Source: Sphingomonas swuensis (GTDB lineage Bacteria; Pseudomonadota; Alphaproteobacteria; Sphingomonadales; Sphingomonadaceae). From it: DNA of 64,000 bases. The notes below the pieces were generated by a model. That model was given only the letters and a program-made list of their open reading frames with translations. It did not search any database and was not told the DNA's origin. Each line of letters opens with the position of its first letter. Position 1 is the stretch's first letter. The DNA is taken from contig NZ_BAABBQ010000001.1 in NCBI RefSeq assembly GCF_039538045.1, positions 2,192,001 to 2,256,000 on the forward strand, read 5' to 3'. This document shows, piece by piece, positions 7,313 through 21,680 of this stretch. Position numbers and translations under genes: made by a program.

Positions 7313-7416
7313 ACCCACCCCATTTCAAGGAGAACCGAGGCGCCTTCGAGCGCGAACTAACCGCTGAGCCCGTCGCTCAGCGGACTGGACAACTATTGCC
7401 TAACAGGGAGAAGGCT

Positions 7417-9606
7417 ATGTCGCATTACAATTACCCTCTGAACACAATCATCGAGATCGATGAGGCGCCTTACAAGTACGTTGGCTTGCCCATGCCGGGC
7501 CGCATTCATCTGATGCACTGCCAAACGGGCCTGCCCTACATCATCGAAGACAAAGAGGGCTTCATGGGGTTGCTGACGCCCGAGGGCTATGATGAGCTGC
7601 TCTTGGAAGGCCGTCTTATCGTACGAGAGACCGAGCGGGCATCGATCGCTCGTAAGATGGCTTCTGAGGCGGAGTGGACGTTCGCTGATTGCGACGAACT
7701 GGACCCCAAGGCCCGCAAGATGCTCGCACAATGCGAGATCCTCGACGATCACGGAGTACCGAATGGCGTCAAGGCGATCGGATTGGCGTTGGGCGATTAT
7801 TGGACGCCTGAGCTTCGCGAAAAGTACGGCGAGCACGACAATCCGCATACCATCAAGCGGTGGCGTACCGACCGTGGTTTCGCAGGCGACCGTAACATCC
7901 GCGACATGGTGCGGATGACCGGCCGGGTCCGCCGCGCTCCCTACTTCGATGACGTACCGCAGGAAGTCCTTCAGAAGGGTGCTCTCCTGAATTGGACGCA
8001 GCAGCTCAGCTACGCGGACGTGACCACTGAAATCAGCAACGAGTTGCGCGACATCAATGCTGGTAACTCGTCGCTCTATCCCAAACCCGAGAAGCCCTAT
8101 CCTATTCCGCACTACGCTACCGTGCGGCGAGCCTGCCGGGCGCTGATTGGGGCCGTTACCCGCGAAGCTCGCGACGGCAAAGCCGCTAGCGACGCCGACT
8201 GGAAGGGTTCAGGCCGCCCGCTGACGGCAAAGCGCGCCCTCGAACTGGCGATCATCGACCATACGCCGATCAACGGGTTCTTCGTTCTCGACCTCGATCA
8301 CGAGATGGTGGCCGGCAAGCCATGGCTGATCGTCATGATTGACGTTCACAGCGAGGTGATTCTCGGCCACGTTATTAGCTACCTCCCACCTTCCTACTGG
8401 ACGGTAGGCGAGGTGCTGAAGCGTGCGAGCCTTCCGAAGCGCCCCCCGCCCAAGCTCATCGAGCGATACCCCATCCTTCGCCGCATCTGCGGCAAGGCGG
8501 CCGAAATCATCGTCGATAACGCAGCTGAGTTCCGGAGCCAGGCGCTCGAAGACGCTGCCAAGGGGGCCGGTTTTGCCGTCCGTCACTGCCCCATCAAGAA
8601 GCCCCGCTACCGCGCGATCGGCGAGCGCATTTTTCCCACGCTGCAAGAGAAAGTCACCAAGCTGATTCCAGGCGGATCGAAGCCCATCGCGCTTGCGCGT
8701 AAGCTCGGCCACGACCCCGAGCAGGAAGCATGCGTCACGGTGCGCGAGCTGGAGGCCTTGGTGAATGCCGCGATCGCGGAATATCACATCTCGACACATT
8801 CCGGCCTCCAAGACCGCCAGCCTGCGCTCGTTTTCGAGAAGAGTGTCGCCAAGCATGGGATCGACTTGATCCACGACCTTGCGGGCTTCCAACGCGAAAT
8901 CATGGATGTGTCACCAGCCGTGCAGCTGTCCAACACCGGCTTGCGGCTCTTCAACCTGCGCTACCACTGCATTCGCGGCGTTCCGAGCTTGCTCGAAGAC
9001 CTCGTTGCCGTGGAACCCCGGCGGCAGTCGCGGGCAGATGCAATCGCCACCGTGAAGGTGAAGTACGACCCTCAAGATATCTCGGTGGTCCACGTCTGGA
9101 ATCGCGTCAAGAAGACTCACACCATCCTTCGCTGCTCGGACGAAACCTATGCAAACGGCATGCCGCTATGGTTTCACAATCAGCTCCTAGAGCGTGCGCG
9201 TGAAGAGGCGGCCGCCTTCAACACAGAGGCAGAGCGGATTGCTTTCCGTTCGCGGCGCATCAAGGCCATTCGCAACATCTCGCCGGAGGCTAAGCATCGT
9301 GAGCGGCTTACGGTCGCACGCCTCTACGAGATCCCGCGTCTCCGGCAGATCACGGGCAACCTCGTCCACCTCCACATGGACGAACCAGAAGCCATTTCTC
9401 TCGACGAGTTCATCGCCCACGACCTCTCAGCAACTACGATGCTGGACGACGAGATTTTGGCTCCTCGACTTCCTGTCGACCAATCTCGCAAGCCGAAGAA
9501 CAAACGGGACCGTCGTGACGCGGGCCAGCCCAGTGAGAGTCAGGAGAGCAAGATGCCTGCCCGTCGCCCCACCCGCACCCGCCGCGTGAGCGGCAGCTAT
9601 GAGTGA
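7417..9606 (+). CDS. tnsB: TnsB-type DDE transposase
   Basis: Integrase-superfamily transposase that binds the transposon ends and joins the 3' strands to target DNA. With the ATG at 7417 it has 729 residues; this start was preferred over the in-frame TTG at 7396 because AGGGAGAAG lies just before it. The catalytic triad is complete: D281 (IIDHTPI), D367 (IIVDNAAEF) and E403 (AIGERIF), the DD35E spacing. N-terminal helix-turn-helix domains precede the core and a Mu-type C-terminal beta-barrel region follows (around VAVEPRRQSR, then KVKYDPQDISVVHVW). The last part is basic and probably binds TnsC. It overlaps tnsC by 8 bases. Confidence 0.93.
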   Translation: MSHYNYPLNTIIEIDEAPYKYVGLPMPGRIHLMHCQTGLPYIIEDKEGFMGLLTPEGYDELLLEGRLIVRETERASIARKMASEAEWTFADCDELDPKARKMLAQCEILDDHGVPNGVKAIGLALGDYWTPELREKYGEHDNPHTIKRWRTDRGFAGDRNIRDMVRMTGRVRRAPYFDDVPQEVLQKGALLNWTQQLSYADVTTEISNELRDINAGNSSLYPKPEKPYPIPHYATVRRACRALIGAVTREARDGKAASDADWKGSGRPLTAKRALELAIIDHTPINGFFVLDLDHEMVAGKPWLIVMIDVHSEVILGHVISYLPPSYWTVGEVLKRASLPKRPPPKLIERYPILRRICGKAAEIIVDNAAEFRSQALEDAAKGAGFAVRHCPIKKPRYRAIGERIFPTLQEKVTKLIPGGSKPIALARKLGHDPEQEACVTVRELEALVNAAIAEYHISTHSGLQDRQPALVFEKSVAKHGIDLIHDLAGFQREIMDVSPAVQLSNTGLRLFNLRYHCIRGVPSLLEDLVAVEPRRQSRADAIATVKVKYDPQDISVVHVWNRVKKTHTILRCSDETYANGMPLWFHNQLLERAREEAAAFNTEAERIAFRSRRIKAIRNISPEAKHRERLTVARLYEIPRLRQITGNLVHLHMDEPEAISLDEFIAHDLSATTMLDDEILAPRLPVDQSRKPKNKRDRRDAGQPSESQESKMPARRPTRTRRVSGSYE

Positions 9607-10579
9607 GGTCAGTCAGATGGCCGAACAGATGAACACCTCGGTCCGGGCCGATAACGGCAAGGAGGGGCGCGCGGAGCGCCCCTCCGAGCGTTCGCGTCGT
9701 GTGGCAGAGGCGCGGGCCTCGTTTCGCGCGATCCGCCTCCCCTACCCTCGGCAGGATGAGCTTGTCGCTGCCCTCGACGAGCTTCGATTGACTGGTCAAC
9801 TCTCGAAGGGGCAGACACAAGGCGGAGTCCGCCTCATCGCAAACACTGGCTCAGGCAAGACGGTCGGAGCTGAGCGTTTCAAAGCCTACGTTGAAGCGGC
9901 TGATGAGCATGCCCCAGGAAGCCAGCCTGTTGTCATCGCGACGGTCGACGGCTCAGGCACCACTCGGTCCATTCCCGCGAGCATCTTGAAAGCCATGGGT
10001 GTCCCACGTCCTGAGCATGGTGCAGAGCCAGTCCTCTGGATGCGGGCCTTCGACGCTCTCGAGCGCTATGAGACACAGTTGCTGATCATCGACGAGTTCA
10101 ACCGCGCGGCTCGCCGGCCGACCATGAGTTCAGCAATCGCGACCGCTCTCCGTGACGTGATGGATCGCGGCATCGTCCCGATGGCGTTTCTGGCTACTGA
10201 GGAAGCACGCGACGTTTTCAAGCGCAGCCCGGATCTTGCCGGTCGATTGGATGCTCCGGTTACCATGGATCCTCTCGATTGGCTTGTGGAGGAGGACAGA
10301 GAGCTGTTCCTTGGCTTCGTTAGCGGCTTAGACGGCGAACTCGTCGATCGAGGCATCCTTCGGCTCTCGTCAGGACTTGCTGAAGAAGCTCTCGCTCGCC
10401 TTCTTTGCGAGGCGTCCAACGGAAACCTTCGCCAGCTCTGCCGCGTCATCGAGACAGCTCTCGCCGCTGCTGTGCGGCGAGACGACGCTGCCATCGGGCG
10501 CGAAGACCTTGCTGACGCAGTTGATGATTGGTCGATCGCCAACCACTGCATCGCCTACAACCCTTTCCGGGCTAAGTAG
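9599..10579 (+). CDS. tnsC: TnsC/TniB-type AAA+ transposition regulator
   Basis: ATP-dependent adaptor that links the target-recognition protein (TniQ/TnsD) to the transposase and sets target immunity. The 326-residue chain has Walker A ANTGSGKT at residues 81-88, Walker B LLIIDEFN at 161-168, and a later sensor region (MAFLATEEARDVF). The C-terminal helical lid contains GNLRQLCRVIETAL, typical of TniB-like ATPases. The start overlaps the 3' end of tnsB. The first 40 residues are polar and probably contact TnsB. TniQ follows after only three bases. Confidence 0.92.
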   Translation: MSEVSQMAEQMNTSVRADNGKEGRAERPSERSRRVAEARASFRAIRLPYPRQDELVAALDELRLTGQLSKGQTQGGVRLIANTGSGKTVGAERFKAYVEAADEHAPGSQPVVIATVDGSGTTRSIPASILKAMGVPRPEHGAEPVLWMRAFDALERYETQLLIIDEFNRAARRPTMSSAIATALRDVMDRGIVPMAFLATEEARDVFKRSPDLAGRLDAPVTMDPLDWLVEEDRELFLGFVSGLDGELVDRGILRLSSGLAEEALARLLCEASNGNLRQLCRVIETALAAAVRRDDAAIGREDLADAVDDWSIANHCIAYNPFRAK

Positions 10580-10582
10580 GCC

Positions 10583-12454
10583 ATGGCGACAGCTAGTCAG
10601 CATGCCCGAGCACCATGGCGCATCGAGGCACCGAAGCCCGTCATCATGGGGGAGTCGCTGGACGGCTACATCGCCAGGGTTGCCGCAGCCAACTGGATCG
10701 AGAATGCCCTAACGATCACGAGCCTGGCTGGCGTGATCTATGGCCATAAGCCGACGTTATCGACGTCGAACTGGGATGGTCTTCCTGTCATTGCCGATTG
10801 CCTGCGCGTCGATGTCGAAGACCTGCAGCTTCGCTCTTATCCGACCGATAATGCCGGGCGCCGTGCGTTCTTTGGGGTGCCCATTCCGCGAAATGATATC
10901 GACATCGCAGTAAGGCGCTTCGCGCCGGCTGCTTTGTCTATCTCGCCCCACCATAGAGCGCTGTGGCAGCTCCGAGCCTTCCCCTTCTGCTGCGAGACAT
11001 GGCAATACCTTGTAGATTGCTGTGCTCGCTGTGAGCGTATCCAGCGTTGGCACCACACCAATGGTGTCGCTCGTTGTGATCGGTGCGTTGAGGATCTCTC
11101 AGCGGTCGAGTCCGACGTCGTACCGAACGAGCTTCGACCAAGCCTTGAGGCGGCCGTAGGCCTGGTCCACCCGGATACCGCTCGCCGGCAGCACAGCCTG
11201 GGTGCACTTCCCGCCGCCTTGCAGCATCTTGGCCTAGCTGAAACGTATGAATTGCTCGTCAGGGTGGCGATCGTCATTCAGCCACGCATCACGCCAGCCC
11301 GATACGGCACGAATGCAAGCTGGAATCAGCCTAAATCTGTGGTGGTCGAAGCCATCGCGGCTGCCTGGAACATGCTTTTGGACTGGCCCCATTCGCTTCA
11401 AGGCCTGATGGCGTACCGGCTAAGCAGCGCATCCACCCGTCATCAAGACGGCAATGGCGGAAGCACAATGCGCTTCCTTCGACTACCCAGTCACGAAGGA
11501 CTTACACGCCAATTACGAGACACGATTGAGCAGTTCCGCTCCTCTATCGATCTCGACGGTCCAAACTCCAGTCATCTGGGCAGGCAGACACTCAGCACTC
11601 AGGATGCGGCGGCTCGCCTCGGATATTCTACCAAGGGCGTCGCTGATCTTCGTAGGCAGGGTGCGCTTGGAACTGTTTTTGCCCTGCATGAGGGTCGGGC
11701 AGCACCCCGTTACGACGCCGCCGAGATTGACGAGTTGGCCGAAATCATTGTGTGCCGGGTTTCATTGGAGAGCGCAGCGTGGAAGCTCGGCATCTCTCAC
11801 CACGGCGTTGAACAGCTGATCGCGATGCAGATGCTGCAAACTCACGGCGATTGCTTCTGCATACCTCGGTATGGCGCTCCGCAGATCGCTGGGCCCGTCC
11901 TTGACGACCTGATCGCGAGGATCGGATCCTCATCCCGATCTTCTCTCGCAAGCGAGCCCATCACGCTGCGAACCGCCGTGGGTTCAATTGGCGGCCGAGC
12001 GAAGCCTTGGGGACCGATCTTCAAAGCCCTGCTTGATGGTGCACTGCCCTTCAAACTCGATCATTGCACTGGGGCACTGACAGAGCAGATTCTTGTAGAC
12101 CACACCTGCATTCGCTTCCTTCGCTCATTTTTCTTCGAAGTTTCCAACTATGAGGGCGCGAAGTTTAGCAACGTGATGTCGCGGCGAGATGCTGGCGAAG
12201 TGCTGAACCTCTCCCCCAAATCCTCCACGCCGCTACTTAAGGGGATGGCATCTGTGCGCGGTGACTCCAAGGCCGTGGACTTCCCGGAAATTGTCAGGCT
12301 CAGCAGAATTCACATCAGCAGCCGCGAAATCGCTCTTCGCCTGGGCATAGCGCCGAAGACGGCGTTTGCCCTAGCCAAGGAGATGATGGTGCCCCTGCTC
12401 GGCCCGGCAGGTTGGTGTCGTGAAGCTGCAGAAAGACAGCTAGGTCTCACCTGA
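10583..12454 (+). CDS. tniQ: TniQ/TnsD-family target-selection protein
   Basis: Target-choice protein of the Tn7-like element. The N-terminal TniQ domain is recognisable (ESLDGYIARVAAANW at about 24-38) and is followed by the zinc-binding region with paired cysteines (FPFCCE near 134, CCARC at 146-150, CDRC at 165-168). At 623 residues it is long enough to be TnsD-like, with two further helix-turn-helix-like parts: AAARLGYSTKGVADLRRQG and, near the C-terminus, EIALRLGIAPKTAFALAKEM. A long C-terminal DNA-binding part suggests recognition of a fixed site rather than an RNA guide; no Cas genes are nearby. The chromosomal target site is not identified here. Confidence 0.85.
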   Translation: MATASQHARAPWRIEAPKPVIMGESLDGYIARVAAANWIENALTITSLAGVIYGHKPTLSTSNWDGLPVIADCLRVDVEDLQLRSYPTDNAGRRAFFGVPIPRNDIDIAVRRFAPAALSISPHHRALWQLRAFPFCCETWQYLVDCCARCERIQRWHHTNGVARCDRCVEDLSAVESDVVPNELRPSLEAAVGLVHPDTARRQHSLGALPAALQHLGLAETYELLVRVAIVIQPRITPARYGTNASWNQPKSVVVEAIAAAWNMLLDWPHSLQGLMAYRLSSASTRHQDGNGGSTMRFLRLPSHEGLTRQLRDTIEQFRSSIDLDGPNSSHLGRQTLSTQDAAARLGYSTKGVADLRRQGALGTVFALHEGRAAPRYDAAEIDELAEIIVCRVSLESAAWKLGISHHGVEQLIAMQMLQTHGDCFCIPRYGAPQIAGPVLDDLIARIGSSSRSSLASEPITLRTAVGSIGGRAKPWGPIFKALLDGALPFKLDHCTGALTEQILVDHTCIRFLRSFFFEVSNYEGAKFSNVMSRRDAGEVLNLSPKSSTPLLKGMASVRGDSKAVDFPEIVRLSRIHISSREIALRLGIAPKTAFALAKEMMVPLLGPAGWCREAAERQLGLT

Positions 12455-12838
12455 GTGATTCAGGTCGCGATCCGGCATACCGGCTTTCCCTTTGGTAGGG
12501 CCGGCAGCCTCGCTCCCTCCAGATGTGTGCCGCAGCTGACACTCGAAAGCTGAAATTACAGCCGGACGCCGAGGCACATCGAGCGCCAGATAAATCGCAT
12601 TGGCAGCAGCGTTCACGGCAGACCAGCGATCATGCTGTCGCTCGCTGCCCAGCCCCTCCCAAAATCCATTAAACGGCCAGAGCGGCAGAACCTTTTCACT
12701 GCCCCTGTGGCGGAGCCACGCAAGGGCCAGCGCGATCCCTCTGCTTCGGCGAACCGGACCCATGTGAGCTGCAGCGGCCGCTTCCTCAATCGTTTCGAGC
12801 GCAAGCTCGCGCAGGTGCTTATCGTCGACTCGCCGCAT
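12440..12838 (-). CDS. Hypothetical protein, 132 aa
   Basis: Minus-strand gene whose 3' end overlaps the end of tniQ by 15 bases. The start at 12838 gives a protein beginning MRRVDDKHLRELAL; an upstream ATG at 12874 is possible. The first half is helical and acidic (ALETIEEAAAAAHMG), followed by WLRHRGSEKVLPLWPFNGFWEGL. No signal peptide, no membrane helix and no family recognised. Composition and the lack of a better frame on the other strand support coding, but it could belong either to the transposon or to the flanking recombinase island. Confidence 0.5.
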   Translation of the reverse strand: MRRVDDKHLRELALETIEEAAAAAHMGPVRRSRGIALALAWLRHRGSEKVLPLWPFNGFWEGLGSERQHDRWSAVNAAANAIYLALDVPRRPAVISAFECQLRHTSGGSEAAGPTKGKAGMPDRDLNHSGET

Positions 12839-13096
12839 GATGCCGTTGAGAACGTATAGAGAACAGAAAGGCAAGCTGCTTAAGCATGCGACTGTCGCGA
12901 TCTCGAACGCCGGTCCTCATTGTACCCGGTGCCGCTCCACCCAGCAGGCCACTGATTTACCCCTCTGTGGCAGGCTCCGTGAGTTCTACCCGTGCGATCG
13001 GCGCAATCGCCTGCAAACGGACGCGGCCCTGGGAGCATCTTTGTGCCAATGATCCTCGTTGCAAAGCAAACAGGCCCCTCTTGTAGGAGCGCAGCT

Positions 13097-14731
13097 TTAG
13101 TGCAGCCTCACATCACGTGCAGAGCTGGGCACCGGTGCTCTGCTTGCTGCCGAGCTAGCCAGCACTGCCGTTTCGAGGGCCTTGCGAGAGCCTCGAATGC
13201 AGACTTCGCCCGCAGCAACGGAAACTTCGTCGACCAGCAGCCTTGTGTAGGCCTGCCGGAGTGCCGGGTTGCCATTGCGGAGGCCTTCCCGCAGCAAAGC
13301 TCCGAATTTCTCCACCAGCTCTGGCGTGATTCGACGGCGATCTGAAGTGAGTTGCCGCTCGAGACTGCAGATGTTGCTGGTCAGGGTTGAGACGCGCTGG
13401 CGATGAAGGGTCAGGCGCTCAGCGAAGTCACGGTCTGAGGGCGAGGCCATCCCCTGCTCGACCAGCTCGTAGAGGCGATTAAGGGCACCTGAGCTGTTGG
13501 TTCTGGCAGAGCGAAGCAGCGCCAGCTCCTCGCGGCGACGAGCGTCGGAAGCGTCGCTCTTCTCGAGGAACGCAGAAAGCAGGTCCGGCAAGCGCTCAGG
13601 AGCCACAATCCTCTGCTCAAGGGCTCCCAGAACAGCGTCGTCCAGCTTCTCCATCCGGATTGCGCCGCCCTTGCAAGCAGTTTCACCCTGCGTGGCTCGG
13701 CGAGAGCAAGCATAGTATCGGTACTGGCCAGACTTGCCGGTACGGATAGTCATGGCCCCACCGCAGCCAAGGCATTTCGCAAGGCCGATCAGCAGCGTGG
13801 GGCCGGAGACAACCCGTGCCGGCGTGCGCCGCGGGTTGCGCTCGGCAAGCCGCGCCTGAACAGTCTGGAAGTCGTCCTCGGCGATGATGACGGGCACAGC
13901 CAGCTCAACCCACTGTTCGCGAGGCCGGCGCTCGCCTGCACGGGAGTCTTTCTGGTTGAAGTAGTGAGTGCCCATGTAGGTGGTGCGGCGAAGGACAGCG
14001 TTCACGTTGGACACGTGGAAGGGCTTACCCCGATACCTGTACCCGCGGCCGTTCAGAAAAGAGACGATCTTCTTGACGCCCAGAGGTCCGCTGGTGCCGT
14101 CACCCTCAAGATAGAGCGAGAAGATGCGACGTATGATCGGGGCTTCAAGTTCATCAATCGCAAGGACCTTCTTGTCCTTGTCGCCCCGTCGCTCGGCCAC
14201 GATCACCTTGTAGCCAAGCGGTGGGCGTGAACCATTCCAGAAGCCCTGCTGCGCGTTGGCGAGCATGGAGCGGCGCACGTGCTTTGCGTTCTCAGCACTC
14301 TGATACTCGTCGAACTTGCTCAGGATTGAGCGCACCAAATCTCCGGTGGCGCCTTCTCCGACATCCTGAGTGATCGAGACCAGTTCGACCTTGGCCTTCG
14401 CAAGCTTGCGTCGGTAGCGTTCGAACTCGAACTGATCGCGGAAGAAGCGGCTGAAGCTGTGGACGATCACAAGATCGTATGGCCGCTCGCGAGCTGTTGC
14501 TGCCTCGATCATTGCCCTGAACTGAGGCCGATGGTCGTCCGTGGCTGATGCCCCGGGCTCACGATAGATCTCGGCAAGGTCGATGCCCCTGCCCTCGCAG
14601 AAGCGGGTGATGGCTCCGACCTGATCAGTCAGGCTGGTTTCGTGCTCTGCCTGGCGGCTCGTGGAAACCCGGACATAGGCGACGGCGCGTAGAGCAGGCC
14701 TGGCGAGAACAGCGGGAAGTTCGGGTGCCAT
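13097..14731 (-). CDS. Large serine recombinase
   Basis: Site-specific recombinase of the large serine family, which integrates or excises phages and genomic islands. The 544 residues contain, in order, the resolvase catalytic domain with nucleophile S23 in AYVRVSTSRQ and the later SRFFRD motif, a Recombinase domain (GYKVI... to about residue 290), a zinc ribbon (CLGCGGAM, then YYACSRRATQGETAC), and a coiled-coil C-terminal part (LERQLTSDRRR). It appears intact. Orientation is opposite to the tns operon, and the size is that of an integrase rather than a small cointegrate resolvase, so it probably serves a separate island. Confidence 0.92.
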   Translation of the reverse strand: MAPELPAVLARPALRAVAYVRVSTSRQAEHETSLTDQVGAITRFCEGRGIDLAEIYREPGASATDDHRPQFRAMIEAATARERPYDLVIVHSFSRFFRDQFEFERYRRKLAKAKVELVSITQDVGEGATGDLVRSILSKFDEYQSAENAKHVRRSMLANAQQGFWNGSRPPLGYKVIVAERRGDKDKKVLAIDELEAPIIRRIFSLYLEGDGTSGPLGVKKIVSFLNGRGYRYRGKPFHVSNVNAVLRRTTYMGTHYFNQKDSRAGERRPREQWVELAVPVIIAEDDFQTVQARLAERNPRRTPARVVSGPTLLIGLAKCLGCGGAMTIRTGKSGQYRYYACSRRATQGETACKGGAIRMEKLDDAVLGALEQRIVAPERLPDLLSAFLEKSDASDARRREELALLRSARTNSSGALNRLYELVEQGMASPSDRDFAERLTLHRQRVSTLTSNICSLERQLTSDRRRITPELVEKFGALLREGLRNGNPALRQAYTRLLVDEVSVAAGEVCIRGSRKALETAVLASSAASRAPVPSSARDVRLH

Positions 14732-15055: not shown

Positions 15056-15398
15056 AGGCGGACCTCTAAATTGGCTAGGCCCTCCGATCGTTCAGGCTGC
15101 TTAGCTCAGCTACATCCGCGTCCGAAAAGACCCACTCTCGGACGTTCAAACGTTGATCGACGCTGCCCGTGAGCGGACGTTGGTTCATCGGGACGCGTTG
15201 AGGCCGGCAAGCCCAATGCGCAGCCTGTCCCCTCGTTTTCTCCTCGGCCGCTGTTGGCCTGAGGAGATGAAGCATGGGACATGCAATCTACGATCCCGGT
15301 CAGTAAGCGCAAGCGCCACGAACGGGCTTGCTGAATATTTCGCCACCCAAGTTGACGGTCGGCGCCGGCGATGCGACCTAATGATTGGGGGTAGGCGC
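15056..15398. other. Intergenic region, no gene identified
   Basis: About 340 bases between the palindrome cluster and the Ycf35-like gene. Frames here are open only by chance and none shows protein-like composition. The promoter of the downstream operon should lie here, but no clear -35/-10 pair was identified. Confidence 0.4.
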
Positions 15399-16031
15399 TT
15401 GTCGCACTGTACGCGTTTCCAGTTTAGTTACCGCGACGAAGCCATTGCGGTCGGGGCATTCCGAAGGCTCGGGCTGCGGCCGGAGACGGCGGTCATCTCG
15501 TGGTATGACAGCGACTTGGCCAAGGCCGTTCTGGGGCACATTGGGATCGCTGGAAAGGGCGTGTCCCGGGCTATCTGCGCGCGCCACTCGCCCTTTCAGC
15601 TGTTTCTCGTGCGAAGCGGCAGCGACTTCCAGCTAGTGATCGAAAGCGACGATCGGTCCGCCCTAGCCGACCACGAGCGGGTCGAGGCGCTAGAGGCGGC
15701 ATTCCGCTTCGCTTATCTCGCCGTCGCCGCCGAGCGCACGCTCTGCGCCTCGCTCGATGATGGCGGTGTGCCCTGGACTATGGAGGAGCAGCCTGACGGG
15801 ATGGTCATCCGCTTCGGGCCGGATCTTGCCCGGCGAGTTATCCTTCGCAGCGTCGGCGACCACGTTGAGGAAGAAGTGGCCGGCGTCTTGGGCGGCCGCT
15901 GCGCCGAGCTGACCGCCGAGCTCGAGGACCTGCTGGCGTCGGCTACCGCCGAGCTGCTGACGGAGTGGAAGCCTTCGTACCACGAGACCATCGACGATGA
16001 AGTGGTGCAGGTGCTGAGGCTGGGCGCTTGA
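15399..16031 (+). CDS. Ycf35 (DUF1257)-like protein with DUF2997-like C-terminus
   Basis: A 210-residue protein proposed to be a divergent fusion of two small families. With a TTG start at 15399, preceded by a GGGGGTAGG ribosome site, it begins MSHCTRFQFSYRDE, which mirrors the MSHF start of Ycf35 proteins. The later FQLFLVRSGSDFQLVIESDD and a helical stretch with FRFAYLAVAAE also fit that family. The C-terminal part (VIRFGPDLARRV, then GGRCAELTAELEDLL and WKPSYHE) resembles DUF2997. Longer in-frame starts exist (15381, 15267, 15153) but lack such support. It overlaps the radical SAM gene by four bases (16028-16031). The biochemical role of Ycf35 is unknown. Confidence 0.5.
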   Translation: MSHCTRFQFSYRDEAIAVGAFRRLGLRPETAVISWYDSDLAKAVLGHIGIAGKGVSRAICARHSPFQLFLVRSGSDFQLVIESDDRSALADHERVEALEAAFRFAYLAVAAERTLCASLDDGGVPWTMEEQPDGMVIRFGPDLARRVILRSVGDHVEEEVAGVLGGRCAELTAELEDLLASATAELLTEWKPSYHETIDDEVVQVLRLGA

Positions 16032-16588
16032 AGCTACGGGTGCATTCCCTTTGTCCATCGTCGTTGGCAAACGGCCCCGGCCAACGTTTCGTGGTCTGGA
16101 CACAGGGCTGCGCGCTTGCCTGCGAAGGCTGCTTCAACCCTGACAGCCATGCCAAGGCCAACGGCGAGATCATCGAGGTGCCGGCGCTTGCCAGGCAGGT
16201 GAACGCTTCGGCCCGCGCCTCAGGGCTCCGCGGACTCACGCTGAGTGGCGGGGAACCGCTCGCTCAAGCGCGGGCCGTGGCGCATCTGCTCGACAGGCTT
16301 GACCCCGCTCTCGACGTGCTTCTGTTCACCGGTCACGAGCTTGCCGAGATTCGCCGGAGCAGCGTCATGCGCGCGGTCATTGCCCGTTGCGATGCGGTCC
16401 TAGCCGGCCGCTATTCGGCTGCGAACGACCATCCCTTTGCCGGCAAGTCGCTGCTGCTTCGTGGCGGGCGGATCCGGGCGGACGAGCTTACCCCCCATCA
16501 TATAATCGAACTGGTGGTCGGGACGGGGCCGAATGCAACCGTCACCGGCTACCCACGGAGAAAGACGTGGACTTCTACGAAGAACTGA
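16028..16588 (+). CDS. Radical SAM / 4Fe-4S activating-enzyme-like protein (NrdG-like)
   Basis: A 186-residue protein with the compact activase fold of NrdG and PflA relatives. The radical SAM cluster motif CxxxCxxC is present (GCALACEGCFNP, about residues 28-39) and the SAM-binding motif LTLSGGEPL follows at about 74-82. It is too small for a full radical SAM catalyst and has no glycyl-radical enzyme partner nearby, so the NrdG name should not be taken as anaerobic ribonucleotide reductase activation. Its start overlaps the Ycf35-like gene, and the ATPase gene begins inside its 3' end, which shows tight coupling. Confidence 0.82.
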   Translation: MKLRVHSLCPSSLANGPGQRFVVWTQGCALACEGCFNPDSHAKANGEIIEVPALARQVNASARASGLRGLTLSGGEPLAQARAVAHLLDRLDPALDVLLFTGHELAEIRRSSVMRAVIARCDAVLAGRYSAANDHPFAGKSLLLRGGRIRADELTPHHIIELVVGTGPNATVTGYPRRKTWTSTKN

Positions 16589-18186
16589 AGAGTGCCATCC
16601 GCGCGCGCTACGCGCTCATCCAGATAGTGTCGGCGGAGGAAAGCAGGTCCTTGGCGGACCTCGAGCGGATCGCCAGCGAACTCCAGCACAACCTGCTCGT
16701 TTGGACCTCCACCGAAGGCGTCAAGGTGCGCGGCAAGGTAGCGGGCGAGAAGACCTCGGACCTCCGCGCCGCGATTGACTATTGCGAGCAGCGCGCGCGG
16801 AGCGGCGAGCCGCTGCTCATGGTGTTCGTCGACGCGGACGCCTTCCTGACCAAGACGTCTCCACCCATCTACCGGCGGCGGCTGAAGGAGCTGGCCAACG
16901 CCATCCGGACGCAAGGCTATCGCGCCAACTGCCTGCTTCTGGGCGTGTCAGCAAATCCACCGGAGGACCTGGTCAAGGACGTCGCCTTGTTCGACTATCC
17001 GCTTCCGACGAGGTCACAATTGCAGCAACTGATCGGCGCCTTCGCGAGCGAGCGGGCGGGCGACGAGCGGTTGCGCATCGACTCAAGGCCCGAGACGATC
17101 TCGGCGCTTGTCGAGGCCTCGCTCGGCCTGACGACCATTGAGACGGAGAACTGCCTTGCCCGGGCGCTGGTAGCGACCCGGTCGCTGAATGCCGACACGG
17201 TCGCGATCATTCTGGAGGAAAAGCGGCAAATAGTCCGCAAGAGCGGAATCCTCGAATATGTCGACACCGGCGGCCTGTCGCTGCAGAGCGTCGGTGGGCT
17301 CGAGACCCTGAAGCGCTGGCTGGCGCTCAGGGCCACTGCCTTCAGTCCGGCGGCGAGGGATTTCGGGCTGGCGGCGCCCAAGGGCGTGCTGCTGACCGGA
17401 ATTCCGGGCTGCGGCAAGTCGCTGGTCGCAAAGTGCGTCGCCGCGGCCTGGCAGCTGCCGCTGCTCCGGCTGGACGTCGGCAAGGTGTTCCAGGGACTTG
17501 TCGGCTCCTCGGAAGCCAATGTCCGGCAGGCAATCTCGACCGCGGAGTCGATCGCTCCGGCCGTTCTCTGGATCGACGAGATCGAGAAAGGCCTTTCTGG
17601 GGTCGGCGGATCGGGCGGCGACGGCGGAACGTCGGCGCGAGTGTTTGGAACTCTGCTCACCTGGATGCAGGACAAGAGCGCCCCCGTGTTCGTGATCGCG
17701 ACAGCGAACGACATCGGCGGCCTTCCCCCCGAACTGCTTCGCAAGGGTCGCTTCGACGAGATCTTCTTCGTCGACCTGCCGACTAGAGCGGAGCGGTCGC
17801 AGATCCTAGACATCCACCTCCGGCGGCGCGGACGGGCAGAGGCCGGGCTGGACCTTGAACGGCTCGCCGCCGCGTCCGGCGAGGAGCGGTTCGGTGACGA
17901 GATCAGACTTTCGGGGGCTGAGCTGGAGAGCTGGGTCAACGATGCCTTATTAGAAGCTTGGCGGCGCCACCTCGAGGGTGGTGACTCAATCCTTGGCATG
18001 GGGGATTTCGAGACCACCATCGCGCGGTTGGTGCCTATGGCCAAAATGCGGGCAACGGACATCAGCAAAGTGCGGCGCTGGGCGTCGGAAAATGCGGTGG
18101 CCGCGACCATTCCGGAGCATAGGATGACGGCTCCGGGCGAAGCAAAGGACCGGCAGGCGGTCGGCGGACGCGCGCTGGATTTCTGA
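16567..18186 (+). CDS. AAA+ ATPase, Ycf46-like
   Basis: A 539-residue classic AAA+ protein with a long N-terminal domain and one ATPase module, the layout of Ycf46. A GTG start at 16567 follows ACGGAG and gives MDFYEELKSAIRARYALI, the usual beginning of this family. Walker A GIPGCGKS is at residues 278-285, Walker B VLWIDEIEKG at about 331-340, and the arginine-finger region is LRKGRFDEIFF. The N-terminal half contains a second degenerate nucleotide-fold-like region (MVFVDADAF). The gene overlaps the radical SAM gene by 22 bases and is followed after 30 bases by two membrane proteins. Substrate unknown. Confidence 0.8.
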   Translation: MDFYEELKSAIRARYALIQIVSAEESRSLADLERIASELQHNLLVWTSTEGVKVRGKVAGEKTSDLRAAIDYCEQRARSGEPLLMVFVDADAFLTKTSPPIYRRRLKELANAIRTQGYRANCLLLGVSANPPEDLVKDVALFDYPLPTRSQLQQLIGAFASERAGDERLRIDSRPETISALVEASLGLTTIETENCLARALVATRSLNADTVAIILEEKRQIVRKSGILEYVDTGGLSLQSVGGLETLKRWLALRATAFSPAARDFGLAAPKGVLLTGIPGCGKSLVAKCVAAAWQLPLLRLDVGKVFQGLVGSSEANVRQAISTAESIAPAVLWIDEIEKGLSGVGGSGGDGGTSARVFGTLLTWMQDKSAPVFVIATANDIGGLPPELLRKGRFDEIFFVDLPTRAERSQILDIHLRRRGRAEAGLDLERLAAASGEERFGDEIRLSGAELESWVNDALLEAWRRHLEGGDSILGMGDFETTIARLVPMAKMRATDISKVRRWASENAVAATIPEHRMTAPGEAKDRQAVGGRALDF

Positions 18187-18216
18187 CAGACGAGCGCAAG
18201 AGAGGAGCTGAAGAGG

Positions 18217-19188
18217 ATGCTGGTACTGAATCCGGTTCACGTGATGAGGCGTACACGGAAGGGGGTGTTCTGGGCCTTGGTCGCGGGTGTTGCGGCCTTC
18301 ACGGTCCTCGCCCTGTTTATGGTCGCGGACGAGGGCGGCTGGGTCGCTTGGGCCTGCCTCCTTTTCTTCGGCGGCGGCGGCGCGGTCGTGACCTTCATGG
18401 GCTTGCTGCCGCCGAAACCTTACCAGCCGCGGCGCTCTCTCAAAGGGTGGCGCGGCACTGACAGCAAGATCGTTCTTGGCTACAAGCTGATGATCGTTGT
18501 TGGATTAGCACTCTCCGGTGCCGCCCTGCTCTGGGGCTTTAACTCCGGCTTCAATGCTGGCCTCGCCAAGGGCCTGCTGGGTGGCCTCGGCCTCGCCGGC
18601 TATGCTTACTATGGCCTAATCGCCAAGTCCGCGCACGGCGATGTCGACGCAGCCGCAGTCGGCATTGCCGCGGATCTCGGCGCGAAAGGCCGCAACAGCA
18701 TCTACCTAGCTTACGCCAATTACGGGGCTGATGATCCGCAGGAGCGCAAGGGCAACATGATCTTCCTGGTCGGCGCGGACCGGGTGATCACCTGCCATCA
18801 TGACGGCCACGACTGGCGTTCGACCGAGCAGCCGTTCGACCGCATCCATGCGCTCGGTCTTCGCCAGACCGAGCAGCACGAGAGCTGCATATACCTCGAA
18901 TTTGAGGATGGCACGTCGACCCTCATCACCCTCGACCCCGCGCTAATCATGACCACCGAGCCGCGGACCTTCATCCGTTCGCTGCTCGAGCTGATTGACC
19001 ATTGGGCACTGGACGGGGCTGCGACTCCGGCTGCGGCGTCGCGTCGCCGGGTGGTGACGGACATGGGCAGTGAGGGGGAGCGAAAGCCCGAACTGGTTGG
19101 CCAGGCGCAAGGCATCGCGTTCGCCACGCCGATCATTGAGGAAATCTCCCCCAGCTTCTCACCCACGGCCAGAAGGCTTGAGGTCTGA
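18217..19188 (+). CDS. Membrane protein, first of two tandem paralogs
   Basis: A 323-residue protein with about four hydrophobic helices in the first 140 residues (including WALVAGVAAFTVLALFMV and WACLLFFGGGGAVVTFMG), then a soluble domain of about 170 residues with NSIYLAYANYGADD and a C-terminal PELVGQAQGIAFATP segment. A strong GAGAGGAG ribosome site lies before the ATG. The next gene has the same layout and shared motifs (MLVLN start, IYLAYAN.GADD, TTEPRTF.RS), so they arose by duplication. No known family recognised. The gap of 30 bases to the ATPase gene suggests one operon. Confidence 0.75.
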   Translation: MLVLNPVHVMRRTRKGVFWALVAGVAAFTVLALFMVADEGGWVAWACLLFFGGGGAVVTFMGLLPPKPYQPRRSLKGWRGTDSKIVLGYKLMIVVGLALSGAALLWGFNSGFNAGLAKGLLGGLGLAGYAYYGLIAKSAHGDVDAAAVGIAADLGAKGRNSIYLAYANYGADDPQERKGNMIFLVGADRVITCHHDGHDWRSTEQPFDRIHALGLRQTEQHESCIYLEFEDGTSTLITLDPALIMTTEPRTFIRSLLELIDHWALDGAATPAAASRRRVVTDMGSEGERKPELVGQAQGIAFATPIIEEISPSFSPTARRLEV

Positions 19189-19239
19189 GTCCTGCGGAGC
19201 TCGACGGGTCGGGCGAAGGACGGGGCAGGGGGACGAATA

Positions 19240-20187
19240 ATGCTGGTGCTGAACGATCTGCAGGTCATCCGGCTGCTCGCCCCGGCAAGGTACCGAAAGT
19301 TCTGCATCGGCTTCCTGTCGATCGCGGCATTGGCCGCCCTCTTCGTTCTCGGCGGCGGCGGCTTTTTGTCTTGGGCCTTCCTGCTCGTCTTCGGCGGGCT
19401 CGGGGCAACCTTCCTCATCATCGGGCTGAAGGCGGCGGAGCCCTACCGACCGGGCCAATCCTTTCCCCTGTGGCGCCAGCGAGATGCGCAGATCGCAAGG
19501 GGCTACGATTCCCTGGTGCCCTACGGAATCCTTATTGCCGTCGCCTGCTTCCTCTACATGGCCGTGGAAGGCTTCAGCGTGCTTGCGACCTTCCTGCTCG
19601 TCGCGGGAGCGGGAACTGCGCTCAGCGGGCGCCATCTCAGGATGGTGAAGAAGGTCCATGGCAATGTCGACGCGGCCGCGGTGGATCAGGCACAGAGAAT
19701 CGGGGAGCGGGCCGCCAACCGCATCTATCTCGCCTACGCTAATTTTGGGGCCGACGATCGGGAGGAGCAACACGGCAACATTCTTTTCTTGGTCGGGGCC
19801 GACCGGATGATCCATGGCCTGCACGATAACCGCGAGTGGCATATGGCGGAATGGGGCTTCGACGAGATCGGAGCGCTCGGCCTGCGGCTGGTGAACGCCC
19901 AGCTGGCGCACATCGTAGTGGTCCACCGCGATGGAAGGCGGATACAGGTACTAATCGATCCGGTACACATCCAGACCACCGAACCGAGGACCTTCGTCCG
20001 CTCGTTCATCGAGCTGATCGATGACTGGTACAGCGGCGGAGCCCAAGACAAGGCGCTGCCGTCCGCCCGAAGGCGCATTGTGGCCGACGTCGAGACCAAG
20101 CCTGCGGAGCTGGTGGGACAGGCCCGGGAGCTCGACTTTGCGGCTCCGCTGATCAAGCGGGCAGCCTCCAGGCCGTTGGAACTCTGA
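19240..20187 (+). CDS. Membrane protein, second of two tandem paralogs
   Basis: A 315-residue paralog of the preceding protein: four N-terminal helices (for example FLSIAALAALFVLGGGG and FGGLGATFLIIGLK), the soluble block NRIYLAYANFGADDREE, the segment TTEPRTFVRSFIELIDDW and the tail PAELVGQARELDFAAPL. It lies 51 bases downstream and has its own GGGG ribosome site. The pair might form a hetero-oligomer in the inner membrane, serving or served by the AAA+ ATPase. This is inference from synteny; no homolog of known function is recognised. Confidence 0.75.
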   Translation: MLVLNDLQVIRLLAPARYRKFCIGFLSIAALAALFVLGGGGFLSWAFLLVFGGLGATFLIIGLKAAEPYRPGQSFPLWRQRDAQIARGYDSLVPYGILIAVACFLYMAVEGFSVLATFLLVAGAGTALSGRHLRMVKKVHGNVDAAAVDQAQRIGERAANRIYLAYANFGADDREEQHGNILFLVGADRMIHGLHDNREWHMAEWGFDEIGALGLRLVNAQLAHIVVVHRDGRRIQVLIDPVHIQTTEPRTFVRSFIELIDDWYSGGAQDKALPSARRRIVADVETKPAELVGQARELDFAAPLIKRAASRPLEL

Positions 20188-20765: not shown

Positions 20766-21680
20766 ATGCTGCAACTCAAGGACTTCAGGGTTAAGTGGCG
20801 CTGGGTCTTCGCCAGTTTTCTTGCAATAGGTCTGGTGACCGCGCATCAATTCTGGAAAGCAGCCAGCTACGATGGCGGGCAGCAGGCGGTTGCCCCGTTC
20901 CGTATCGCCGGCAATCTCTACTACGTCGGGGCGAACGACGTGACCGCCTTCCTGATTACAGGTCCGCAAGGACACGTACTGATCGACGGTGGCTATCCGG
21001 GCACGGCGCGGCTGATCATTGCGAGCATCAAGAAGCTTGGCTTCCGTATCGAAGACGTCAGACTCCTGCTCAACTCACACGGGCATTTCGACCATGCCGG
21101 TGGGCTCGCCGAACTCAAACGAGCGAGCGGCGCGCAACTGTGGGTCAGCGAAGGCGACGCCGATGCGGTGGAGAGTGGAGGGGCCGCGGACCAGTCGTCA
21201 GGTCCGCTAAGATTCCTCGCGGCAAGCGGGCTCCTCGCTTTTCCAGGTGCTAAGGTTGATCGAAGGATCGCTGATGGCGCGATCGCAAGTGTCGGTCCGG
21301 TGAAGCTCACGGCGCATATCACGCCCGGGCACACGCGCGGTTGCACCTCTTGGTCCTTTCCGGTGCGGGATGCCGGGCGCGACCTGCTCGCGGTAAATAT
21401 CTGCAGTCTCAGCCCGTCGCCGTTTGAGCCAATTGGCAGGAGAGGCGATTACCCCGGCGTCAAGCAGGCCTTCGGGCAGAGTCTAGGCCGGCTGAAGGCC
21501 CTGCAGGCGGACATCTACCTGACGCCGCATGCCCGTGACTTCGGACGCTGGCGCAAGCTTCAGGAGAGGCAGGCTGGCACGGACCCTGCCAAGCCGTTCA
21601 TTGATCCCGAGGGGTATCAAGCAGCCCTGGCAAAGGCAGAGACCAAGTTCGCGCGTTACCTGAACGAGCAGCTCAACTGA
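20766..21680 (+). CDS. Subclass B3 metallo-beta-lactamase
   Basis: Periplasmic zinc enzyme of the B3 metallo-beta-lactamase group, which hydrolyses penicillins, cephalosporins and carbapenems. The 304 residues start with an N-terminal hydrophobic signal (VFASFLAIGLVTA). Zinc ligands are all visible: HGHFDHAGG (H, H, D, H of HxHxDH), then the His in TPGHTRGCTSW, and the His in LTPHARDFG. The B3 landmark is the use of TPHARDF rather than a Cys ligand. No mobile element is directly adjacent and repeats lie on both sides, so it is probably a resident chromosomal gene. Activity on carbapenems is predicted only. Confidence 0.85.
   Translation: MLQLKDFRVKWRWVFASFLAIGLVTAHQFWKAASYDGGQQAVAPFRIAGNLYYVGANDVTAFLITGPQGHVLIDGGYPGTARLIIASIKKLGFRIEDVRLLLNSHGHFDHAGGLAELKRASGAQLWVSEGDADAVESGGAADQSSGPLRFLAASGLLAFPGAKVDRRIADGAIASVGPVKLTAHITPGHTRGCTSWSFPVRDAGRDLLAVNICSLSPSPFEPIGRRGDYPGVKQAFGQSLGRLKALQADIYLTPHARDFGRWRKLQERQAGTDPAKPFIDPEGYQAALAKAETKFARYLNEQLN

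What the first reader, a model, noticed from the sequence alone, without database searches (positions are those of the whole stretch)
15399..20187. Ycf35/DUF2997-like + radical SAM + Ycf46-like ATPase + twin membrane proteins: candidate uncharacterised system
Ycf35 and Ycf46 are conserved proteins of cyanobacteria and plastids with no known reaction. Here divergent relatives occur in a non-photosynthetic bacterium in a tight operon (4- and 22-base overlaps) with a NrdG-like radical SAM protein and two paralogous membrane proteins of an unrecognised family. A terminator ends the operon and a mobile-DNA region precedes it. A plausible model is ATP-driven remodelling or modification of a membrane complex using SAM radical chemistry.
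Basis: partly seen in the sequence, partly recalled or inferred. Interest (0 to 1): 0.8.

Follow-up and report, generated by a model that had tools for sequence, protein, structure and literature searches.

The report
Tail-tagged radical-SAM and ATPase machine
A horizontally acquired gene cluster encodes an ATP-driven ring protein, a radical-chemistry enzyme and membrane proteins, three of which end in the same short tail; the same tail marks unrelated proteins in matching clusters across many phyla, which points to an undescribed protein machine built on two long-unexplained chloroplast protein families.

Summary
The five-gene operon is real. Gene 1 is a fused DUF1257(Ycf35)-DUF2997 protein; then come an intact NrdG/PFL-AE-like radical SAM protein, a Ycf46-like AAA+ ATPase and two paralogous membrane proteins with a predicted PH-like domain. 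The membrane family recurs beside the ATPase and radical SAM genes, in shuffled order, in Pseudomonas, Prevotella, Brevibacillus and a Synergistaceae bin.

The ATPase and both membrane proteins end in one short tail, R-x-[LIV]-[DE]-[FLIVY]-COOH. In related loci 131 of 2326 called genes end this way (1.4 expected; seven control motifs give 1-4). Bearers are unrelated: ATPases, TM-PH, TM-helix-hairpin-helix, ankyrin, MORN, TPR and Mrr-nuclease-domain proteins. In 14 genomes a stringent form of the tail ended 20 real genes, all inside the cluster. Tail and radical SAM gene go together across loci (56/4/13/56), but a tree-aware test lacks power and exceptions exist. The host genome has no detected glycyl radical enzyme for the activase-like protein.

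Best reading: an ATP-driven, membrane-anchored radical-SAM machine whose own proteins carry a C-terminal address tag, probably read and perhaps modified by the radical SAM enzyme. The chemistry is inferred, not shown.

The parts
15399..16031 (+). gene 1: fused DUF1257(Ycf35)-like and DUF2997 protein, 210 aa (TTG start; ATG at 15381 possible)
   Evidence: DUF2997 above cut-off; DUF1257 by profile comparison; confident single-chain model, pLDDT 90
16028..16588 (+). radical SAM protein, NrdG/PFL-AE-like, 186 aa, with CxxxCxxC and GGEP
   Evidence: conserved residues
16567..18186 (+). Ycf46-like AAA+ ATPase, 539 aa
   Evidence: relatives beside DUF1257/DUF2997 on cyanobacterial plasmids
18169..18183 (+). 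C-terminal tag of the ATPase (RALDF, after GG)
18217..19188 (+). memA: membrane protein of the TM-PH family, 323 aa
   Evidence: Alignment with memB and distant relatives
19171..19185 (+). C-terminal tag of memA (RRLEV)
19240..20187 (+). memB: membrane protein, 315 aa; model has four TM helices (15-37, 42-63, 82-110, 114-139), PH-like domain 162-264, low-confidence tail 270-315
20068..20082 (+). RRRIV motif in the memB tail, shared with other tagged proteins
20125..20139 (+). internal tag-like copy in the memB tail (RELDF)
20170..20184 (+). C-terminal tag of memB (RPLEL)

Best explanation
The operon encodes a self-contained, horizontally acquired protein machine. A Ycf46-type AAA+ ATPase works with the small proteins DUF1257 and DUF2997 (fused here). 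A NrdG/PFL-AE-like radical SAM enzyme and one to several membrane-anchored or binding-domain partners are tied to it by a common C-terminal tail, R-x-[LIV]-[DE]-[FLIVY]-COOH, which the ATPase itself carries too. The tail is an address used within the cluster. I think it most likely that the radical SAM protein reads it, by a peptide-binding mode derived from the one its activase relatives use on a short R-x-x-G-[YF] loop of their partner (that loop is recalled, not tested), so that the ATP-driven complex is held at the membrane and the tails are bound and possibly modified. Shown by sequence: the parts, their recurrence, the tail, its confinement in the form tested, and its association with the radical SAM gene.
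For: 131 of 2326 genes in 111 related loci plus part of the window end in the tail, 1.4 expected; seven control motifs give 1-4. Bearers belong to unrelated families. 54 of 65 loci with a tagged ATPase hold another tagged ORF. In 14 genomes (about 69 Mb) a stringent form of the tail ends 20 real genes, all in the cluster, and none outside. Tail and radical SAM gene: both 56, tail only 4, radical SAM only 13, neither 56 of 129 loci, Fisher p 5.6e-19; within 73 loci with both DUF genes 51/3/8/11. Radical SAM motifs intact. No Gly_radical (PF01228) or NrdD (PF13597) match in the host genome while control genomes ring.
Against: The locus counts are not corrected for ancestry; the tree-aware test found only 5 independent pairs on supported branches, 2.5 agreeing and 0.6 opposing, no significance, and tail against the two DUF genes did at least as well (2.7 to 0.2); the tail also goes with DUF1257 and DUF2997 in raw counts. 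Exceptions: tagged ATPase without a radical SAM gene within 8 kb in L037, L044, L076, L090; radical SAM gene without tagged ATPase in 13 loci (8 of them with 4 kb on both sides); tagged neighbour but no radical SAM gene in L011 and L125. Internal tag-like copies in 9 of 77 tagged proteins argue against a strict need for the free end. No biochemistry exists.
Confidence: 0.5

Rival explanations
1. Assembly-only tag: the tail is a docking motif bound by the DUF1257/DUF2997 pair or by the ATPase, building a membrane-anchored complex; the radical SAM enzyme acts on another substrate, for example the G-x-x-C site of DUF2997.
For: Internal tag-like copies; tail follows the DUF genes as well as the radical SAM gene on the tree; Gly165 and Cys168 of gene 1 are invariant in 34 aligned DUF2997-containing rows.
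Against: Cyanobacterial plasmid loci with both DUF genes but no radical SAM gene have no tail (L124, L155, L157); among 73 loci with both DUF genes the tail splits 51/3/8/11 with radical SAM.
Confidence: 0.3
2. Degron or extraction signal: the ATPase recognises the tail and unfolds or extracts the tagged membrane proteins.
For: The ATPase is closest to CDC48-type AAA+ proteins and most partners have TM helices.
Against: The ATPase itself carries the tail in 65 loci; untagged relatives of the ATPase are common; no protease in the operon.
Confidence: 0.08
3. Anti-phage defence system whose interchangeable tagged proteins are sensors or effectors.
For: Mobile-DNA context of the window; variable binding-domain partners and one Mrr-type nuclease domain partner; plasmid and viral-contig occurrences.
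Against: PADLOC matches in the operon are generic AAA and radical SAM folds; of 90 neighbours from 23 tagged loci only single ones match most defence models (SspF, SspG and others one each, mads_3 three), and two are phage integrases.
Confidence: 0.1
4. Chance neighbourhood: the radical SAM gene is an ordinary NrdG or PFL activase beside unrelated genes.
For: Best family matches are NrdG and PFL-AE.
Against: Both far below curated cut-offs (79.1 of 126.1; 62.9 of 231.75); no glycyl radical enzyme found in the genome; the same neighbours in many phyla.
Confidence: 0.02

Closest known systems
Cyanobacterial duf2997-ycf35-fed7 cluster (PMC4284462, one passage read) and plasmid AAA-DUF1257-DUF2997 clusters
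   Same: Homologous AAA ATPase with DUF1257 and DUF2997 genes; an iron-sulfur protein gene (ferredoxin 7) beside them in the paper's cluster
   Different: No radical SAM gene within the fetched 6 kb and no C-terminal tail in those plasmid loci; DUF1257 and DUF2997 are separate genes
NrdG and pyruvate formate-lyase activating enzyme
   Same: Same radical SAM subfamily by best match; CxxxCxxC and GGEP motifs
   Different: Below curated cut-offs; no glycyl radical enzyme in the genome; sits in an ATPase/membrane-protein operon
C-terminal sorting tags such as LPXTG and PEP-CTERM (recalled)
   Same: A short conserved C-terminal sequence shared by unrelated proteins and handled by a dedicated machine
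   Different: The motif is the very end of the protein, with no TM helix after it; carried by the ATPase itself; confined to the cluster in the form tested
Radical SAM maturation of peptide tails, e.g. mycofactocin (recalled)
   Same: Radical SAM enzyme encoded beside proteins with a conserved C-terminus
   Different: Bearers are full-size proteins, not short precursor peptides; an AAA+ ATPase is a core part
ComEA-type helix-hairpin-helix proteins
   Same: A frequent tagged partner in other clusters has an HHH_3 domain and N-terminal TM helices
   Different: Far below the comE cut-off (38.7 to 50.3 of 152.35), and tagged; the window proteins have a PH-like domain instead

Membership tests
DUF2997 (PF11211) | Pfam match above curated cut-off | tested here: met
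   26.8 bits, cut-off 24.1; invariant G and C of the G-x-x-C motif kept
DUF1257 / Ycf35 (PF06868) | Pfam match above curated cut-off | tested here: not met
   No match to gene 1 nor anywhere in the genome at E 10
DUF1257 / Ycf35 (PF06868) | Homology by profile comparison, with the MSHxT start | tested here: met
   hhalign probability 93%, E 2.9e-7, aligned from residue 1; so a divergent relative, not a Pfam member
Ycf46-like AAA ATPase | AAA domain, and homology to cyanobacterial AAA proteins beside DUF1257/DUF2997 | tested here: met
   PF00004 116.6 bits; Pseudanabaena plasmid protein 38% identity over 94% of the query, beside both DUF genes. Orthology to plastid Ycf46 itself was not tested
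NrdG (TIGR02491) | Score above equivalog cut-off | tested here: not met
   79.1 of 126.1 bits
NrdG (TIGR02491) | Partner NrdD in the genome | tested here: not met
   No PF13597 match; 6 of 14 control genomes ring
Pyruvate formate-lyase activating enzyme (TIGR02493) | Score above cut-off and a Gly_radical partner | tested here: not met
   62.9 of 231.75 bits; no PF01228 match in the genome
Radical SAM superfamily | CxxxCxxC cluster motif and GGEP | tested here: met
   Both present in the window protein; in 69 aligned relatives chosen for having CxxxCxxC, GGEP is nearly invariant; PF13353 above cut-off, PF04055 below
PH-like domain (memB 162-264) | Seven-strand sandwich with C-terminal helix, matching solved PH domains | tested here: inconclusive
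IetAS anti-phage system | IteA equivalog score | tested here: not met
   53.7 of 510 bits; PADLOC IetA match E 8.4e-16 covers only the AAA domain
LPXTG/PEP-CTERM-like sorting signal | Motif followed by a TM helix and basic end | tested here: not met
   Direct reading: the motif is the last five residues; defining features recalled

The most novel reading that the evidence does not exclude
The C-terminal tail is the substrate of a new protein modification: an ATP-driven Ycf46/DUF1257/DUF2997 engine presents the tails of its own ATPase and of interchangeable membrane partners to a radical SAM enzyme, which modifies the R-x-[LIV]-[DE]-[FLIVY] end (for example at the penultimate acidic residue, which sits where activase relatives take a hydrogen from glycine; that comparison is recalled). 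This would be a new class of radical-SAM protein-tailoring machine, and chloroplast Ycf46/Ycf35 would be the stripped-down form of its engine.
Probability: 0.3. Interest if true: 0.93.

Novelty: categorically new. Interest (0 to 1): 0.82.

Why it matters
Ycf35 and Ycf46 are conserved in cyanobacteria and algal plastids, and to my knowledge (recalled) have no known reaction. Finding their relatives in widespread clusters with a radical SAM enzyme and a shared C-terminal tag gives a concrete, testable handle on the module. A short cluster-specific tail that joins unrelated proteins to one ATPase/radical-SAM core would be a new way of addressing proteins, and possibly a new post-translational modification.

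Tried and rejected
Rejected: an ordinary NrdG/PFL activase. A known PADLOC system. A tail arising by chance or composition (control motifs). A genome-wide set of tagged proteins: in 14 genomes no gene outside the cluster ended in the stringent form; that DNA pattern misses variants with E, L, Y or V ends and some codons (one of the 14 genomes gave no match although its ATPase is tagged), and it also admits Ser at one place. In the own genome a narrow pattern gave 6 matches: one is the ATPase end, three end in TGG and are no stops, one lies in a 49-residue stretch, and one ends a 137-residue low-complexity open stretch of unproven gene status.

Rows dropped or doubtful: loci L128-L151 have 1.5 kb flanks and were left out of the 2x2 counts; 20 of the 24 non-own phylum places were refetched with wider flanks. 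Of 145 loci with an ATPase, 129 entered the count: loci with a cut ATPase end, or with no radical SAM gene and under 4 kb on a side, were dropped, five of them tagged (L024, L035, L045, L079, L159). Admitting short-flank loci only when the radical SAM gene is present favours the association; with 4 kb on both sides the count is 38/4/8/56 of 106. L038, L078 and L161, counted as radical SAM without tail, have misread or cut ATPase frames. The relaxed tail also admits an end in Y or one extra L (GGRKIDLL). The 84 non-ATPase tagged ORFs include one ATPase (L090) and two likely chance ORFs (L004:9355, L110). One search did not scan L159. The ATPase loci are the best 80 of 579 found in the genome scan, so they lean towards near relatives. 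Two of 71 radical SAM candidates (L127, L158) lack the CxxxCxxC spacing.
Full report
WHAT IS THERE. Five + strand genes lie at 15399-20187. Gene 1 (15399-16031) is a fusion. Its last part matches DUF2997 above the Pfam cut-off (26.8 bits, cut-off 24.1). Its first 146 residues match no Pfam model, but their family profile aligns with canonical DUF1257 (Ycf35) proteins from the initial MSHxT (hhalign probability 93%, E 2.9e-7). The TTG start at 15399 reproduces that conserved start; an ATG six codons upstream is also possible. The radical SAM gene (16028-16588) overlaps gene 1 by 4 bases and keeps CxxxCxxC and GGEP; its only PDB matches at E 0.001 are pyruvate formate-lyase activating enzymes. 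The AAA gene (16567-18186) overlaps it by 22 bases. MemA and memB are paralogues (42% identity).

THE TAIL. Reading the gene ends in these clusters showed a common C-terminus: ATPase GGRALDF, memA ARRLEV, memB SRPLEL; Pseudomonas membrane protein GRRLEL; Synergistaceae ARVIEL; Prevotella helix-hairpin-helix (HhH) proteins GRKLDL and GRSLDL. Over 111 fetched ATPase loci plus part of the window, 131 of 2326 called genes end in R-x-[LIVMF]-[DE]-[LIVMF], against 1.4 expected from the internal rate. Seven control motifs (K, E or D for R; basic or polar residues for the acid; reversed; permuted) gave 1 to 4 of 2326. Among 97 distinct eight-residue ends, position -6 is G in 54 and E in 25, -3 is L, I or V in all, -2 is D in 72 and E in 25, -1 is F 43, L 36, I 11, V 7. 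Further tails end in Y (for example SGRIVDY, QGRVIDY).

WHO BEARS IT. Besides the ATPases, bearers include TM-PH proteins, TM-HhH proteins, ankyrin-repeat proteins, an SH3-MORN protein, GYF-HhH, TPR-HhH and an Mrr-type nuclease-domain protein. One rumen alphaproteobacterial contig (L010) has seven tagged genes besides its ATPase. Of 65 loci with a tagged ATPase, 54 have at least one tagged non-ATPase ORF of 100 aa or more, 84 ORFs in all; of the 11 others, four are cut by contig ends (L009, L045, L079, L159), and L159 was not scanned in that count. Tagged ATPases occur in ten named phyla, one of them archaeal; 14 of the 65 loci are unassigned. In PH-type and ankyrin-type proteins the tail region also carries RRR-type motifs (12 of 77 tagged non-ATPase proteins; 28 of 1696 in all proteins) and in 9 of 77 an internal tag-like copy (94 of 1696).

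CONFINED TO THE CLUSTER. In 14 genomes that hold the system (about 69 Mb) a DNA pattern for GRx[LIV]DF-stop matched 29 times. Twenty matches end ORFs of 170 aa or more, and all twenty lie inside the fetched cluster ranges; nine are not gene ends (two are no stops, seven lie in stretches of 51 aa or less) (ranges). So in this form the tail is an address within the cluster. Other variants were not searched genome-wide. In the own genome a narrower pattern found no other convincing gene end.

WHAT GOES WITH THE TAIL. In 129 loci with a usable ATPase end and context: tail and radical SAM gene 56, tail only 4, radical SAM only 13, neither 56 (Fisher p 5.6e-19); with 4 kb on both sides 38/4/8/56 of 106; within 73 loci that have both DUF genes 51/3/8/11. 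Cyanobacterial plasmids show an untagged form without a radical SAM gene in the fetched stretch: Pseudanabaena, Planktothrix and Trichormus. Against this: L037, L044, L076 and L090 have a tagged ATPase but no radical SAM gene nearby; L011 and L125 have a tagged neighbour without one; eight well-covered loci have a radical SAM gene but no tagged ATPase, though in one (L126) two neighbours end in variant tails. The counts are not corrected for ancestry. On the ATPase tree (tail removed) the tail changes 9 times and the radical SAM gene 10 times; five independent pairs rest on supported branches, on average 2.5 the same way and 0.6 the other, which cannot reach significance, and tail against both DUF genes did at least as well. 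I therefore treat 'the radical SAM enzyme reads the tail' as likely, not shown.

ORIGIN. Among 197 near relatives only the own genome has the ATPase at E 1e-60. Of 398 genomes drawn from the phylum 24 have one at E 1e-50, the own included; among the other places one, partial, is tagged (G340, 61% identity over the C-terminal half). With TniB/TniQ-like genes and a serine recombinase just upstream, horizontal gain is the natural reading.

HOW IT PROBABLY WORKS. Established knowledge (recalled): AAA+ proteins of the CDC48 class form rings and spend ATP to remodel proteins; NrdG and PFL-AE bind a short loop of their partner and abstract a hydrogen atom from a glycine. Here the activase-like protein has no such partner: no Gly_radical and no NrdD match in the genome, while the same searches ring in control genomes. 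Beside it stand proteins with a short R-x-x-acid-hydrophobic tail. My best model is that the radical SAM protein binds these tails, joining the ATPase ring, the DUF1257/DUF2997 pair and the membrane-anchored partners; the ATP cycle then acts on, or presents, what the partners hold. Whether the tail is only held or is chemically altered is the key open point.

WHAT IS KNOWN. Three papers in the library name DUF1257 or DUF2997; one lists the cyanobacterial cluster duf2997-ycf35-fed7 (PMC4284462, one passage read). A paper on red algal plastids associates the presence of ycf35 and ycf46 with habitat (PMC5940233, passages read). No paper held contains both 'radical SAM' and 'Ycf46'; 32 contain 'Ycf46', of which 30 were seen as a listing; further term searches found nothing relevant. 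Subscription papers and bioRxiv as such were not searchable, so 'not described' means not found by these searches. No NCBIfam model reached its cut-off for the ATPase, DUF or radical SAM proteins tested.

DEFENCE? PADLOC finds only generic folds in the operon. Of 90 neighbours from 23 tagged loci, three match a mads_3 model, single ones match SspF, SspG and other models, two are phage integrases, and the Pfam list (first 25 of 86 families) is mostly ordinary metabolism and transport. A defence role is possible but not favoured.

Noticed in passing
window 7396-14731: TniB/TniQ-like transposition genes (and a weak integrase-core match) followed by a large serine recombinase just upstream of the operon, a sign of a mobile island.
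   Followed up: partly
L126 8874-10211 (Paenibacillus polymyxa plasmid): The ATPase is untagged, but the two membrane-type proteins after the radical SAM gene end in SRVIHF and KRVIRL, which look like variant tails in which the acid is replaced.
   Followed up: no
L122 5345-9569 (Treponema succinifaciens plasmid): Radical SAM and tagged ATPase (ends RKLEM) sit next to a gene annotated phage baseplate assembly protein V.
   Followed up: no
L125 5953-9276 (Rhizobium bangladeshense plasmid p7): Phage-like plasmid with ATPase, DUF1257 and DUF2997 but no radical SAM gene nearby; a 220-aa neighbour ends in RRRALDL.
   Followed up: no
L010 240-8166: Seven tagged proteins in a row, four with ankyrin-like repeats by eye (one checked by Pfam), beside a fused DUF1257-DUF2997 gene.
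   Followed up: partly
L065 4299-9338: A run of small tagged helix-hairpin-helix proteins (seven), like a rapidly duplicated partner family.
   Followed up: no
window 20766-21680: A metallo-beta-lactamase-fold hydrolase follows the operon; no sign that it belongs to it.
   Followed up: no
window 15399-16031, residues 162-168 of the product: DUF2997 keeps an invariant G-x-x-C in all 34 aligned rows, with or without a radical SAM gene nearby; its role is unknown.
   Followed up: no
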